From a virus: a DNA stretch of 20,213 nt. The translations under genes were made by a program, and so were the position numbers. The notes below the pieces were generated by a model. That model did no database searches and was not told the origin of the DNA. It saw only the letters and a list, made by a program, of their open reading frames with translations. The DNA lies in IMG/VR virus record IMGVR_UViG_3300027782_000458, positions 1-20,213 of that record, one strand, 5' to 3'. Each line of letters starts with the position of its first letter. The first letter of the stretch is position 1. Below are positions 8,984 to 19,135 of the stretch, in pieces.

Positions 8984-9019
8984 AAAACAAAAATAGGGGA
9001 AGGCTTTTACACCTCCCCC
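8984..9019 (-). terminator. Intrinsic terminator after the major capsid gene
   Basis: In minus-strand RNA, GGGGGAGG (9012-9019) pairs with CCUUCCCC (8996-9003) around an 8-nt loop and is followed by UAUUUUUGUUUU running into the methyltransferase ATG. One pair is G-U in minus-strand RNA but A-C on the plus strand, so the hairpin favours minus-strand transcription. A partial terminator here would raise capsid mRNA relative to the genes downstream. Confidence 0.7.
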
Positions 9020-9038: not shown

Positions 9039-10208
9039 TTAGATTGCTCCGTAAACTGCTGCGCTTGGTTGGAACTGAAGAAGTTCACAACGAGCCTCGC
9101 AACGGAAAGTGATGAGATTCTTGATGAAGTCATCTTGGTCGAACTCAGTAGACCTTACTGCGAGTCCAGATTGTTGTGCAATGGCGAACTTAGTAGTATC
9201 CATTACATACATTCTTGATGCAGTTACAAGGCTATGAGGTATAACAGGAACACCCGCAATACGTACATTACCATTGTTGTCGATAACCATACCGCCAGGT
9301 ACTGAGTAGTCAGCAGGCTTAGTCTTCAGAAGACCTGCCCAACCTGCATGAGTTATCAAAGCGAGATTAGCAGTCCAATTCGCTGCACCCAACTGAGCAA
9401 GATAATCAATGAACTTCTCGGCAGTGTTAGCACCAGAAGAAGAACCTGCGGTTGCAGAAGATGCAATAGCATTCAGGTAATATGTATCTTCAGCTCTTTG
9501 GAAGTCTTCAATTAAAGATTGCTGCAAGTAAGCCTGAAGGAAAGGCAGATCATCAATCATCTGGCGAGATACTTTAGCGTATCCTGCGATGAAAGACAAT
9601 GCGGTGTTTACAACAGTGACGTCATAATCCACCTGAGGCTTAGCAGTATTTTCCGATTGTTTGCCAAAACTGCCTTCTCCCGTGGGGGTATTACCACGTG
9701 GGAAAGATACTGAACCAGTTGATACAGGGATGATGTTGAACACGCTGCGAAGGTGTGGGTTCACGAATGAACGCAGTGCAGGATTGTCAACGTAAGATGT
9801 GTAAACAGAACCAGTAAGGTTGTTTGCAATGGTCATAGTGCCAACTGCTTTCAGGTCAAGGTCTGCTGAGAAACCCTTACCATTTGTACGTGCAGCATTT
9901 TTGATTTCGTTATAACCTTTCTCAATTACATTAGCAATTTCGCCTTTGATAACGTTAATATGCTCTGCGTAAGATGTAGCAACTTTGCTTTCAGTCTTAG
10001 CGTTGATTTTACCCAATGCTGCTTTAGCTTCCAGTGCTTCTTTACGAGCCTCTTCAAGAGATTGGTTGTTCTTTACAAGTTGCTCATTGATTTGCTCAAT
10101 GCGTGTTTCGAAGGCTTTTGCAGCCTTTTCGTTTTCTGCTGAAACGGCAGCTTTTTGCTCCGCCAGTTTGGATGCAAGAGCATCCTCAAATTTTTTTAAT
10201 TCTTCCAT
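9039..10208 (-). CDS. Major capsid protein, HK97 fold
   Basis: This 389-aa protein has the two-part layout of HK97-type capsid precursors. Residues 1 to about 75 are a Lys/Glu/Ala-rich coiled coil (the delta or scaffold domain). A shell domain follows from about residue 105 to the end. Features seen are 'LRSFVNPHLRSVFNIIPVSTGSVSFPRG' in the first strand region and 'ADYSVPGGMVIDNNGNVRIAGVPVIPH' in the C-terminal half, the typical '..G..I.G.PV......' block. A prohead protease is encoded immediately upstream, so the delta domain should be removed during maturation, probably near residues 95-110. The gene starts 2 bases after the protease stop and is followed by a terminator. Confidence 0.92.
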   Translation of the reverse strand: MEELKKFEDALASKLAEQKAAVSAENEKAAKAFETRIEQINEQLVKNNQSLEEARKEALEAKAALGKINAKTESKVATSYAEHINVIKGEIANVIEKGYNEIKNAARTNGKGFSADLDLKAVGTMTIANNLTGSVYTSYVDNPALRSFVNPHLRSVFNIIPVSTGSVSFPRGNTPTGEGSFGKQSENTAKPQVDYDVTVVNTALSFIAGYAKVSRQMIDDLPFLQAYLQQSLIEDFQRAEDTYYLNAIASSATAGSSSGANTAEKFIDYLAQLGAANWTANLALITHAGWAGLLKTKPADYSVPGGMVIDNNGNVRIAGVPVIPHSLVTASRMYVMDTTKFAIAQQSGLAVRSTEFDQDDFIKNLITFRCEARCELLQFQPSAAVYGAI

Positions 10209-15716: not shown

Positions 15717-17966
15717 TTATGGCACTATTTTGCTAAATCTACCCCTTCCTTCTTGTTTAAACATACTTGCGAAATCCTTTTTTTTCATGCTAATTTCAAA
15801 CTTACGTTCTGGTAAATTATTTATTTTACATATCTCTTTTGCTTGTTTAGATGTAAACTCATCAGGCAGCAGATCATAAAGTTTTTGTGATTCTTTATTT
15901 AATCCTGTGTTAATTTCATTAATCAATCCACCAATTATCCTAATTGTGTTCTCGGCATAGTACCTATACAATCTGTATGCATTGTGTACTGTTTTCTCAT
16001 CAATTATTGGATTTACTATATCGTTCATAATTGCAAGTACTTGGCAAAGTCGTGGCAGGTATGCAGACATTTTAGCCTCTGTACCCATGATAAATCCTTC
16101 TGATTTGTTTATTATCCTATTATTTGCTTCACCTTTTATTTGTTTATTGTAATGCCTAAAAGCATCTTTTCCTTCTTCAGTAATCATAATCCTTTGCTTT
16201 ACCAAAACATCGTTATTGTATTGATAACCAATGGAATACAAGTCTTCAACTATCTGAACCCATTCAGTACACATCTCCTTTTTTTGACTGAATGGGTCTT
16301 CGTCAATATTCAATAAAATGTAATCGGAATCAACCATTAAAAACCTTGATGCAAAACCACTTTCAAGCCTATCATCAGTAAATATATTTTTCAATCGGCT
16401 TGGTTGTGTACCCATTAATAAATTTAAGTTTAAGTTAGGTACAACCCTTTCAAGTGTCTCATCGGCACGTATTTGTGTAATCCTGCCACCAGAGAAAGCC
16501 TGAGTAAAGAATGATATTGAATCATTGCTTTTCTTGTATCCTCCTGCGTTTAAAATGGTTTCGGCTTCATCTTGGTATACCCCCATCCCGTTTTTTTGGT
16601 GCATAGATTTACTTATATAGCCTTCAGTAGTGCCATCCACAATTATTGGAATGTACCTTTTTGGTCTTGGCTCATCAAAAGATTGTTTATCTTTTTGTGA
16701 TTTAGATTTTTTTAATGTCCATTCCTTTAATTCTTCGTTAAACTTTTTATCACCTTCTTCTTGTATTCTTTTTAATGGTGTTTCACACATTACTTTATAA
16801 GCAGGAGTTTTACCAACGGAAACAGGAGCAATCATAAGGCAGAAAAGAATGTTTTTGCCGTCACCATTGAAATCAGAAAAATACCTATCCCCTGCAAGGC
16901 TGCTTATTGTCCAAAGCCCTGCCGTTGCAACAAATTGAGGAGCGAGTGATCTTGCCTCTGAAACTTCAAGTATTGATTTAGCAATAATATTCGGGAATAC
17001 ATCCAATGGAAATTTTATTTCATTTTGCACTATTGGTAATTCTTCACCTTGTGCTTCAAGAATCATTTTGCATACTTCAACAGTTGTATCCCAGTCTCTA
17101 TTATTCTTATAAAATAATATAAATGATGGAGGCAAAGACCAAATTTCATATTCTTCTTTGTCATGCCATGATGGGTATTCTGGCATTGATGCCGTGAATA
17201 GCATCATTCTTTTGCTTTTATAATAAACCTTAGCAGAATATAAAGCCTCTGATCCTTTACGCCTAAATGCAACAAAAGAATCTTTCTGCTTGTACCTAAA
17301 ATCATGTACTTGCTCAAGACCTATCTCATTAAGTATCTGAGTAAAATTCTCATCAGATAGCACTTTATCGAATTTCATCAAAACATCTTGATGTTCTATT
17401 GGGTAATTTACCGCCTTCTTATTTGGATCGTATTTAGGTTTATATTCATTGAAAAGCTGACTTGTCTCAACTAAGTTTTGGTATTCCTTTGATGTCAAAT
17501 AGCCAACATCCTCCATTGATTGGTGGTAAAGAGAATAGCCAGGTGTAGGATAGGTGTAAATAAGTTTACGTTTGCAGTAAACTGCGATGACTTCAGCACC
17601 TTCATCAGATTTGGCTATGCCTGTTTTATGTGTTAGCCCTGTATACTTAAACCAAACGTGGTAGCCTTTATTTCTTGTTTCTTCAATGTATAATTTATTA
17701 TATACATCAGGCATTGTATTTATTACAATTGCCTTCCATTGGTTAAATATGTCCTTATTTTGGGTATTCTTTAGGTCAAAGTCAAGGCATCCGTAGTCGT
17801 CATCAATCCTAACCATTAACCCGTTATGGGTATTATGTAGTGGAAATAGTTCTTTTGCCGTCTCCCATCCTACTGGGTGGTAAGTTGATTTCTTATCTGC
17901 ATCCCAATTAACACCAATTGGGAATAAGCCTAACTCTGCGTAATCGTTATAATATTGTTCTATCAT
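15717..17966 (-). CDS. Primase-polymerase / DUF3987-type helicase fusion
   Basis: This 749-aa protein joins two replication enzymes. Residues 1 to about 160 look like an archaeo-eukaryotic-type primase-polymerase. 'GCLDFDLK' at 59-66 supplies the metal-binding Asp62 and Asp64, 'NKGYHVWFKY' at 99-108 supplies the conserved His103, and Glu125 with 'YTYPTPGY' (137-144) fits the third acidic position and PPS-like loop. Residues about 320-690 are a DUF3987-type P-loop ATPase, with Walker A 'APVSVGKT' (380-387), Walker B 'GVYQDEAE' (462-469), a sensor-like 'LLMGTQPSRL' (516-525) and a possible arginine finger at Arg541 in 'GFASRF'. The Walker A lacks the usual second Gly but keeps GKT. It should start and unwind the replication fork. 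It begins 12 bases after the HNH stop and ends at the repeat region. Confidence 0.85.
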   Translation of the reverse strand: MIEQYYNDYAELGLFPIGVNWDADKKSTYHPVGWETAKELFPLHNTHNGLMVRIDDDYGCLDFDLKNTQNKDIFNQWKAIVINTMPDVYNKLYIEETRNKGYHVWFKYTGLTHKTGIAKSDEGAEVIAVYCKRKLIYTYPTPGYSLYHQSMEDVGYLTSKEYQNLVETSQLFNEYKPKYDPNKKAVNYPIEHQDVLMKFDKVLSDENFTQILNEIGLEQVHDFRYKQKDSFVAFRRKGSEALYSAKVYYKSKRMMLFTASMPEYPSWHDKEEYEIWSLPPSFILFYKNNRDWDTTVEVCKMILEAQGEELPIVQNEIKFPLDVFPNIIAKSILEVSEARSLAPQFVATAGLWTISSLAGDRYFSDFNGDGKNILFCLMIAPVSVGKTPAYKVMCETPLKRIQEEGDKKFNEELKEWTLKKSKSQKDKQSFDEPRPKRYIPIIVDGTTEGYISKSMHQKNGMGVYQDEAETILNAGGYKKSNDSISFFTQAFSGGRITQIRADETLERVVPNLNLNLLMGTQPSRLKNIFTDDRLESGFASRFLMVDSDYILLNIDEDPFSQKKEMCTEWVQIVEDLYSIGYQYNNDVLVKQRIMITEEGKDAFRHYNKQIKGEANNRIINKSEGFIMGTEAKMSAYLPRLCQVLAIMNDIVNPIIDEKTVHNAYRLYRYYAENTIRIIGGLINEINTGLNKESQKLYDLLPDEFTSKQAKEICKINNLPERKFEISMKKKDFASMFKQEGRGRFSKIVP

Positions 17967-17978
17967 AGGTTAGTAAAG

Positions 17979-18563
17979 TTAATGGTTATGAATTTGGGAA
18001 TGACAAGCATGGCAAACAGATACCAATTCAAATAGTGGTTCATTTGTTAAATTACGATAACTTAAATGGTGTACGGCTTGTGCAGAAGCAGATAAACACG
18101 CTTGGCAAATGTTATTGTCTCTTTTCCTAACCATTGCAGCTTTCTGCCTCCACTTTTCAGATTTTATGTAGGTATCATAAATAGCTTTCCATTCAAGTTG
18201 ATTTCTTCTTTTTAATTCTTCATTAAATTGTCTTACTATTTCGTAATACAGATTAGAAACACGATCATGGTTTTTTTGGTATTCTTCACGTCTTTCTTTT
18301 GTCAAATGTGGCAATGTATGGTAGTCTGTACCCTTTGGGATTGCTTTTCCTTTTACTATTTTACAATTCTTACAAGCGGTTTTTCTAACCCAAGATCCAT
18401 TTGATTGCTCAACCATGATATGTATTAGATTTTCTGACTTACAACATATACCATAATCGTAAGTCTTACCATGTTCCCCACAATCATAGCATCCAAAAAA
18501 TTGTTTGAATTCAACATCTTGTAAAATGATGTTTGTACTTCCGCATTTTTTACATACTTGCAT
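17979..18563 (-). CDS. HNH endonuclease with N-terminal zinc-binding motifs
   Basis: The frame opens at 18635, but the first 24 codons run through a strong RNA hairpin, so I prefer the ATG at 18561-18563 (194 aa). Residues about 150-194 contain the HNH nuclease: Cys153/Cys156, the HH pair at 165-166, an Asn near 171-174, and Cys184/Cys187 with His188 and His192. The N-terminal 70 residues hold further CxxC pairs (Cys4/Cys7, Cys25/Cys28, Cys64/Cys67, plus Cys40/Cys41), consistent with one or two zinc ribbons. A charged helix (about residues 85-125) joins the parts. HNH enzymes near phage packaging genes can assist terminase cleavage, but free-standing homing endonucleases look similar. There is no Shine-Dalgarno motif; the ATG abuts a U-tract. 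Confidence 0.82.
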   Translation of the reverse strand: MQVCKKCGSTNIILQDVEFKQFFGCYDCGEHGKTYDYGICCKSENLIHIMVEQSNGSWVRKTACKNCKIVKGKAIPKGTDYHTLPHLTKERREEYQKNHDRVSNLYYEIVRQFNEELKRRNQLEWKAIYDTYIKSEKWRQKAAMVRKRDNNICQACLSASAQAVHHLSYRNLTNEPLFELVSVCHACHSQIHNH

Positions 18564-18632
18564 AAAAAAAGAAACCCAAAACAGCAGGGGTAGAACCGAG
18601 GTTTGCTTACAACCTCTCCCTGCCATTTTGGG
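18564..18632 (-). terminator. Intrinsic terminator formed by stem P2 and its U-tract
   Basis: A 15-bp stem (CCCAAAAUGGCAGGG with CCCUGCUGUUUUGGG) is followed at once by UUUCUUUUUUU, the standard form of a rho-independent terminator, although the enclosed loop of 28 bases is longer than usual and itself structured. It lies directly before the HNH start, so readthrough or regulated antitermination would be needed to express the HNH gene from upstream. Confidence 0.75.
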
Positions 18633-18674
18633 CATAAATGTTTTTATTACCTGATGGGTTCTACTTCACCAGAT
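18564..18674 (-). ncRNA. Candidate structured RNA with a loop-to-linker pseudoknot and terminal U-tract
   Basis: The minus-strand RNA can form four mutually compatible helices. P1 is CUGGUG/CAUCAG (18667-18672 with 18651-18656). P2 is 15 bp (18618-18632 with 18575-18589) and includes two G-U pairs. P3 is GAGGUU/AACCUC (18611-18616 with 18598-18603, 7-nt loop). A perfect 8-bp pairing joins GUAGAACC in the P1 loop (18657-18664) with GGUUCUAC between P3 and P2 (18590-18597). About 70 of 98 bases are paired. P2 is followed by UUUCUUUUUUU and then the HNH ATG. The two wobble positions are A-C on the plus strand, so the fold belongs to the minus-strand transcript. It could be a small RNA, an attenuator or a riboswitch-like leader for the HNH gene. 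I do not recognise a known class. Confidence 0.65.
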
Positions 18675-18677
18675 TAA

Positions 18678-19094
18678 TCACAAATTTACAACTTTATCAT
18701 AAAGTTCCAAAAACTCATGGGCAGTCCTTATGAATTCATAAATTCCGCCTGAACGCCTCTCTCTTTCCTGCTCTTGTATCTGCTCTGGTCTTGGTCTGTC
18801 AGAGCCTACCTTAATTTCTATCATTACTGATCTGCCTTTTATTGTAGCTGAGATATCCGCCGTGCCTTTCCTTGTAGATGACGGAATCCATTTACCCTTT
18901 ATAATCCTTCCTTGTACATTAACCCTTGTGGCACGATGACCTTTCCAGAACAGGAAGTTTGTGATATACTTCGTTAAACCATTTGCCTTGGTGATAGTCG
19001 GCATTGGAGGGGGCGAATAAAGTCCATCTTTCCAAGCGTTTGGATATTGTTCTTGAAACCATGCTTTGTGTGCTTCGTTGTAGCGTTCTTTCAT
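18678..19094 (-). CDS. VRR-NUC domain nuclease
   Basis: This 138-aa protein matches the small phage VRR-NUC group of PD-(D/E)XK nucleases. Residues about 38-58 form an N-terminal helix and strand ('LTKYITNFLFWKGHRATRVNV'). 'KGTADISATIKGRSVMIEIKVGSDRPRPEQIQEQE' at about 76-110 contains the catalytic Asp80, Glu93 and Lys95 and the conserved Gln near 105-109. The end is helical ('IRTAHEFLELY'). VRR-NUC proteins are structure-selective nucleases and some resolve branched DNA, which fits a gene between recombination and replication functions. It follows a terminator hairpin by about 11 bases and carries a promoter-like sequence in its last codons. Confidence 0.85.
   Translation of the reverse strand: MKERYNEAHKAWFQEQYPNAWKDGLYSPPPMPTITKANGLTKYITNFLFWKGHRATRVNVQGRIIKGKWIPSSTRKGTADISATIKGRSVMIEIKVGSDRPRPEQIQEQERERRSGGIYEFIRTAHEFLELYDKVVNL
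18681..18711 (-). promoter_or_regulatory. Bacteroidetes-type promoter TTTG-N19-TAAATTTG
   Basis: Within the last codons of the VRR-NUC gene the minus strand has TTTG (18708-18711), 19 bases, then TAAATTTG (18681-18688). This matches the -33/-7 pattern described for Bacteroides (TTTG and TAnnTTTG, spacing about 17-23). Transcription would begin near 18674-18676, just before hairpin P1 of the structured RNA, giving an RNA of about 110 nt if it stops at the terminator. Confidence 0.55.
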
Positions 19095-19105
19095 AATAAT
19101 TAGTT

Positions 19106-19135
19106 AAAAATCCCCCGATGTAGAAACACCGAGGG
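19106..19135 (-). terminator. Intrinsic terminator between the SSB-like and VRR-NUC genes
   Basis: Minus-strand RNA CCCUCGGUG (19127-19135) pairs with CAUCGGGGG (19112-19120) around a 6-nt loop and is followed by AUUUUU. Two of the nine pairs are G-U in minus-strand RNA but A-C on the plus strand, which ties the hairpin to leftward transcription. The gap between the genes is 61 bases. Confidence 0.65.

What the first reader, a model, noticed from the sequence alone, without database searches (positions are those of the whole stretch)
18564..18711. Promoter, pseudoknotted RNA and terminator unit in front of the HNH gene
A TTTG-N19-TAAATTTG promoter at the end of the VRR-NUC gene is followed by about 110 nt that form four compatible helices, including a perfect 8-bp pairing between the P1 loop and the P3-P2 linker, and then a strong U-tract. 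All non-Watson-Crick positions are G-U on the transcribed strand only. The unit has everything needed to be an independent small RNA, or a sensing leader that controls the HNH endonuclease by attenuation. The helix order (P1 loop pairing to the 3' linker inside P2, after P3) does not match a class I recognise. The pairings are seen; the function is inference.
Basis: partly seen in the sequence, partly recalled or inferred. Interest (0 to 1): 0.85.

Follow-up and report, generated by a model that had tools for sequence, protein, structure and literature searches.

The report
Kissing-loop RNA leader of phage replication genes
Many phages of Bacteroidota bacteria start their DNA-replication genes with a short folded RNA in which an early hairpin grips the transcription-stop hairpin just before the start codon; dozens of unrelated sequences keep this grip, so it probably controls whether the phage switches on replication.

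Summary
On the minus strand a Bacteroidota promoter (18681-18711) is followed by HP1, an A-rich linker, a terminator stem with an inner hairpin, a U-tract, and at once the ATG of the HNH gene. HP1's loop pairs perfectly (8 bp) inside the terminator. Loci found only through flanking genes, not through the RNA, show the same architecture with at least 30 different pairing sequences. Two permutation tests (35 and 19 elements) gave 0 of 100,000. In two sub-alignments the pseudoknot helix pairs in 100% and 98.8% of cells, with double compensatory changes. The element is not specific to HNH. Over three quarters of non-redundant phage loci with a DUF4373-type initiator carry it. Of 20 near-complete contigs, 12 showed one clear copy and none two, always at the replication module (initiator, primase, prim-pol or helicase), sometimes behind an inserted ORF such as this HNH gene. 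The start codon follows the U-tract by a median of 6 nt, so these genes must be transcribed through the terminator. Best reading: a kissing-loop-braced attenuator leader of the replication operon. Structure and conservation are shown; attenuation and its trigger are inferred. Rfam has no match. New variant of a known kind.

The parts
18681..18711 (-). Bacteroidota-type promoter TTTG-N19-TAAATTTG at the end of the VRR-NUC-like gene
   Evidence: TAnnTTTG just upstream of 44 of 56 elements, about 0.036 expected per element
18649..18674 (-). HP1 hairpin (8 bp, 10-nt loop) at the inferred 5' end of the RNA
   Evidence: 4 of 8 pairs with double compensatory change
18657..18664 (-). PK 5' strand, HP1 loop GUAGAACC
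18634..18648 (-). A-rich single-stranded linker
18618..18633 (-). P2 5' strand (terminator stem)
18598..18616 (-). P3 hairpin inside the terminator; the fastest-evolving part, with compensatory changes
18590..18597 (-). PK 3' strand GGUUCUAC, pairs with the HP1 loop
   Evidence: 100% of cells paired, all changes two-sided
18574..18589 (-). P2 3' strand
18564..18574 (-). U-tract (UUUCUUUUUUU); U-tract end to ATG is 20 nt or less in 55 of 56 elements
17979..18563 (-). HNH endonuclease ORF (194 aa) starting directly after the U-tract; an inserted ORF
   Evidence: PHROG HNH families; other ORFs in this place in relatives
15717..17966 (-). Prim-pol/DUF3987 primase-helicase, the replication gene next in the operon
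   Evidence: Pfam DUF3987 1e-32; PHROG DNA helicase 9.4e-29
18678..19094 (-). VRR-NUC-like nuclease gene upstream; its end holds the promoter
   Evidence: PHROG endonuclease / Holliday junction resolvase

Best explanation
It is a cis-acting RNA leader, a transcription attenuator, of the phage replication operon. Transcription starts just before HP1. HP1 folds first. As RNA polymerase makes the terminator, the strand inside the terminator hairpin pairs with the HP1 loop, as a pseudoknot beside P3 (window class) or as a loop-loop kiss (second class). This braces the terminator, and most transcripts should end in the U-tract as a roughly 110-nt RNA. The replication genes, with or without an inserted ORF such as HNH, are made only when polymerase reads through. 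Shown: promoter match, structure, covariation, position, strand specificity and start-codon adjacency. Inferred: that the terminator works in vivo, that the kissing pair tunes termination, and that a phage or host factor relieves it.
For: Two gene-anchored sets, collected without use of the RNA, show the HP1-loop/terminator pairing: mean longest complement 6.37 against 4.15 (sd 0.17) and 6.53 against 4.24 (sd 0.27), 0 of 100,000 permutations each. Covariation: PK helix 100% and 98.8% of cells paired, no one-sided changes. Blind search for a conserved terminator motif: every hit with a U-tract and enough upstream sequence also has a complement of 6 nt or more in the upstream hairpin loop. Placement: 20 near-complete contigs gave one clear element in 12 and never two, next to a replication gene or an ORF just before it; 30 of 38 DUF4373 loci; first or second downstream gene is an initiator, primase or helicase in nearly all elements. 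U-tract to ATG median 6 nt, so no separate promoter fits between them. Promoter in 44 of 56. RNA-level strand asymmetry 52 of 56. Architecture scan: 38 real against 0 null at score 48 or more. No antisense promoter (2 of 56) and no conserved in-frame leader ORF (16 of 56).
Against: No RNA-seq or termination assay was available. Other terminators in this phage also lie close to a following gene (19112-19135), so adjacency alone is not unique. No mutually exclusive antiterminator fold was identified, and the PK and terminator are compatible, so this is not the classical two-state switch. The trigger for read-through is unknown. Replication genes in 8 of 38 DUF4373 loci and in several VRR-NUC loci lack the element.
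Confidence: 0.55

Rival explanations
1. A free-standing small RNA acting in trans (sponge, regulator or protein decoy), with the adjacent ORF placed by genome compactness.
For: Own promoter and strong terminator; compact self-contained fold.
Against: No conserved exposed seed: primary sequence differs almost freely between phages. Start codon abuts the U-tract in 55 of 56, and the element stays with downstream replication genes while upstream genes differ.
Confidence: 0.2
2. A translation-control leader: the kissing pair sits next to the start codon and gates ribosome entry, as the ColIb-P9 repZ pseudoknot does for a plasmid replication initiator.
For: Loop-to-distal pairing directly upstream of a replication gene; U-rich, SD-less start region. 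ColIb-P9 precedent in the references of PMC10724649.
Against: G+C-rich stem followed by 6-8 U is terminator-like; no antisense RNA promoter; no leader peptide.
Confidence: 0.1
3. An origin-linked RNA, such as a primer made by termination in the U-tract next to the initiator gene.
For: At most one per near-complete contig and always at the start of the replication module.
Against: GC skew is monotonic and cannot place an origin; no RNA-DNA evidence.
Confidence: 0.08
4. Just a strong terminator with a chance pseudoknot.
For: Long G+C-rich stem with U-tract.
Against: Permutation and covariation tests.
Confidence: 0.02

Closest known systems
pT181 repC transcription attenuator (described in PMC4878617)
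   Same: 5' leader with a first hairpin, a kissing interaction and an intrinsic terminator in front of a replication-initiator gene
   Different: pT181 kisses an antisense RNA in trans and switches between antiterminator and terminator; here the kiss is intramolecular, compatible with the terminator, and no antisense promoter is seen
ColIb-P9 / IncB repZ pseudoknot leader (cited in PMC10724649)
   Same: HP1-type loop pairs with a downstream strand close to the start of a replication gene
   Different: There the pseudoknot activates translation and competes with antisense RNA; here the partner lies inside a terminator
Phage/satellite P4 CI RNA and leader termination before the alpha (primase) gene (own knowledge, not tested)
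   Same: RNA pairing and premature termination upstream of phage replication genes
   Different: CI RNA is a processed trans-acting RNA; no such RNA is shown here
HEARO / IscB omega RNA
   Same: Structured RNA next to an HNH gene
   Different: No Rfam match, and the downstream gene is usually not HNH

Membership tests
Intrinsic-terminator attenuator leader (general kind) | Promoter, leader RNA and intrinsic terminator directly upstream of the controlled gene | tested here: met
   (by sequence; transcription itself not measured)
Intrinsic-terminator attenuator leader (general kind) | Regulated read-through of the terminator | not testable with these tools
   needs RNA-seq or a reporter
Intrinsic-terminator attenuator leader (general kind) | Mutually exclusive antiterminator structure | tested here: inconclusive
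   partial-transcript fold of the window only; none obvious
pT181-type countertranscript attenuator | Antisense RNA promoter across the first hairpin | tested here: not met
   antisense -7 motif in 2 of 56 elements
Any Rfam 15 family (riboswitches, HEARO and others) | Match at or near the gathering score | tested here: not met
   none at gathering; only chance miRNA/L10 matches with relaxed threshold
IscB-HEARO system | RNA tied to an IscB RuvC-HNH gene | tested here: not met
   small HNH protein matching HNH PHROGs only; most elements precede other genes
Type III toxin-antitoxin (ToxI-like) RNA | Tandem pseudoknot repeats before a conserved toxin gene | tested here: not met
   single copy in the window; downstream genes are mostly replication genes
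This new element family | Promoter, HP1, linker, terminator with HP1-loop-complementary strand, U-tract, ATG within 20 nt | tested here: met

The most novel reading that the evidence does not exclude
The loop pair is a self-recognition code. Each phage's replication leader is specific for its own sequence, and released leader RNAs (or an unknown factor) act on leaders of the same specificity, giving copy-number or superinfection control by freely reprogrammable kissing loops, as in plasmid incompatibility RNAs but with both halves carried in one molecule.
Probability: 0.12. Interest if true: 0.88.

Novelty: new variant of a known kind. Interest (0 to 1): 0.72.

Why it matters
It marks the start of the replication module in many Bacteroidota phages and gives a shared, testable hypothesis for how they control replication genes. 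Its topology is strictly kept while the sequence is nearly free, which may be why family-based RNA searches have not listed it, and it is a natural set of kissing-loop terminators with different specificities. It occurs in an isolate, Flavobacterium phage 11b, so it can be tested.

Tried and rejected
(1) HNH-specific regulator, HEARO/IscB or toxin-antitoxin RNA: rejected by the changing downstream genes, the absence of Rfam matches and single copy. (2) Complementarity of the SSB/VRR-NUC terminator loop to the HP1 loop: the terminator loop is conserved in relatives whose HP1 loops differ, so chance. (3) 'PK evolves faster than the rest': not supported; P3 is fastest. (4) Antisense RNA control: no promoter. 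(5) Leader peptide or N-terminal extension: not conserved. (6) Origin placement by GC skew: uninformative. (7) Elements in host chromosomes: 295 genomes of one class searched with model R1, one weak hit without the architecture. (8) Firmicutes phages with related initiator genes have too little intergenic space. (9) Literature searches found no description; a published catalogue of candidate structured RNAs in viruses and phages that I recall could not be found in the library, so overlap with such lists is unchecked.

Full report
What is there. On the minus strand of the window the end of a VRR-NUC-like gene carries TTTG-N19-TAAATTTG, a Bacteroidota promoter match. It is followed by HP1 (8 bp, 10-nt loop), an A-rich linker, a 16-bp terminator stem P2 enclosing P3, the strand GGUUCUAC, a U-tract and, directly after it, the ATG of the HNH gene. 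GGUUCUAC pairs perfectly with GUAGAACC in the HP1 loop. The fold is far more stable than shuffles (z -4.05). Rfam has nothing, and there is one copy in the record.

Relatives. The HNH and VRR-NUC proteins were used to fetch loci from IMG/VR without using the RNA. Directly downstream of VRR-NUC most loci with a gap there show TAnnTTTG, a hairpin, a terminator with U-tract and an ATG, in sequences that are often unrelated. In nearly all of these the hairpin loop is complementary to a strand inside the terminator. Two layouts exist: class A (as in the window), where the strand lies between P3 and the 3' half of P2; and class B, where it lies in the terminator loop, a true loop-loop kiss.

Statistics. 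HP1 loops chosen by local folding alone were compared with their own and with foreign terminators. Mean longest complement is 6.37 (own) against 4.15, sd 0.17 (foreign), 0 of 100,000 permutations, n=35. A second set, upstream of DUF4373 initiator genes of mostly other phages, gave 6.53 against 4.24, sd 0.27, 0 of 100,000, n=19. An architecture scan found 38 distinct elements at score 48 or more against none in second-order Markov sequence of the same size. In two sub-alignments the pseudoknot helix has 100% and 98.8% of cells paired, with 4 of 8 and 5 of 9 pairs changed on both sides and none on one side only; the covariation score exceeds every shuffle and every slid register. A covariance model without the window finds it at E 1.6e-6 and also finds the other class A elements. 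The strand that would be transcribed folds better than its complement in 52 of 56, so the constraint is on RNA. The 56 include elements picked by a scan that used the pairing; the permutation sets do not depend on it.

Blind check. A conserved sequence around the class B kiss (GGGGATGG-N5-12-GCCTGAACC) was searched in all IMG/VR contigs. Hits followed by a U-tract all had a complement of 6 nt or more in the upstream hairpin, apart from one cut off by its contig end; hits without a U-tract look mostly like chance matches in other phages, L286 being a true element that the U-tract test missed.

Genes. Downstream comes DUF4373, a CHC2-type primase, prim-pol/DUF3987, a DUF6291-like or DUF1376-like initiator followed by a helicase, or a helicase, sometimes after an inserted HNH, GIY-YIG or small ORF (the DUF6291, DUF1376, CHC2 and GIY-YIG names are read from sequence, not from a family scan). 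L309 is an exception, with small ORFs. Of 38 non-redundant DUF4373 loci, 30 have the element. Twenty near-complete contigs gave at most one clear copy each (12 with one); two shorter contigs, L062 and L065, have two in series with different loop pairs. Flavobacterium phage 11b, an isolate, has one before a small ORF and an initiator-like gene. Firmicutes phages with related initiators lack room for it, and 295 genomes of one host class gave no convincing hit.

Mechanism. The U-tract end to ATG distance is a median of 6 nt, 20 or less in 55 of 56, and the promoter match lies just before HP1 in 44 of 56. Hence the downstream replication genes can be transcribed only through the terminator, from this promoter or from further upstream. 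I therefore favour an attenuator leader whose terminator is braced by the HP1 loop. The PK strand lies roughly 8-24 nt before the U-tract, so it should leave the polymerase about when the U-tract is made (inference). The relieving signal is unknown. An antisense RNA and a leader peptide are unlikely. Plasmid replication leaders (pT181 attenuator, PMC4878617; ColIb-P9 pseudoknot, cited in PMC10724649) are the closest in logic but use trans antisense RNAs.

Limits. There are no transcription data. Class A and class B may be one family or convergent; model R1 reaches class B only weakly (L115, L112, L184). Absence from the literature was tested only in the open library.

Noticed in passing
window 19112-19135 (minus strand) and the same place in L008-L012, L015: A second strong terminator between the SSB-like and VRR-NUC genes, with conserved loop (UGUUUCUACA / UGUGUCUACA) and a conserved upstream stretch AATGTTCAATCTGTGATTTACCC; it has no HP1 partner.
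   Followed up: partly
window 8996-9019 (minus strand): Strong terminator just after the gene at 9039-10208 that looks like the capsid gene, before a methyltransferase-like ORF and a glycosyltransferase-like ORF lying within the structural gene block.
   Followed up: no
L065:1390-1508 and L062:2554-2646: Second kissing elements in series on the same contig, each with a loop pair different from the first, before a replication gene.
   Followed up: partly
L037-L043, downstream of VRR-NUC: A different hairpin (GTCATTAAAGG..CCTTAATGAC) without terminator in VRR-NUC relatives that lack the element.
   Followed up: no
class A and class B elements (e.g. L012, L184; L086, L115): Conserved internal loops in the terminator stem (GGCG/CAAA-like and GAU/UGAA) that look like a protein or RNA recognition motif.
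   Followed up: partly
L051:3001-3486: VRR-NUC homologue whose N-terminal half is close to the window family while the rest diverges, followed by a GIY-YIG-like ORF in the place of HNH.
   Followed up: no
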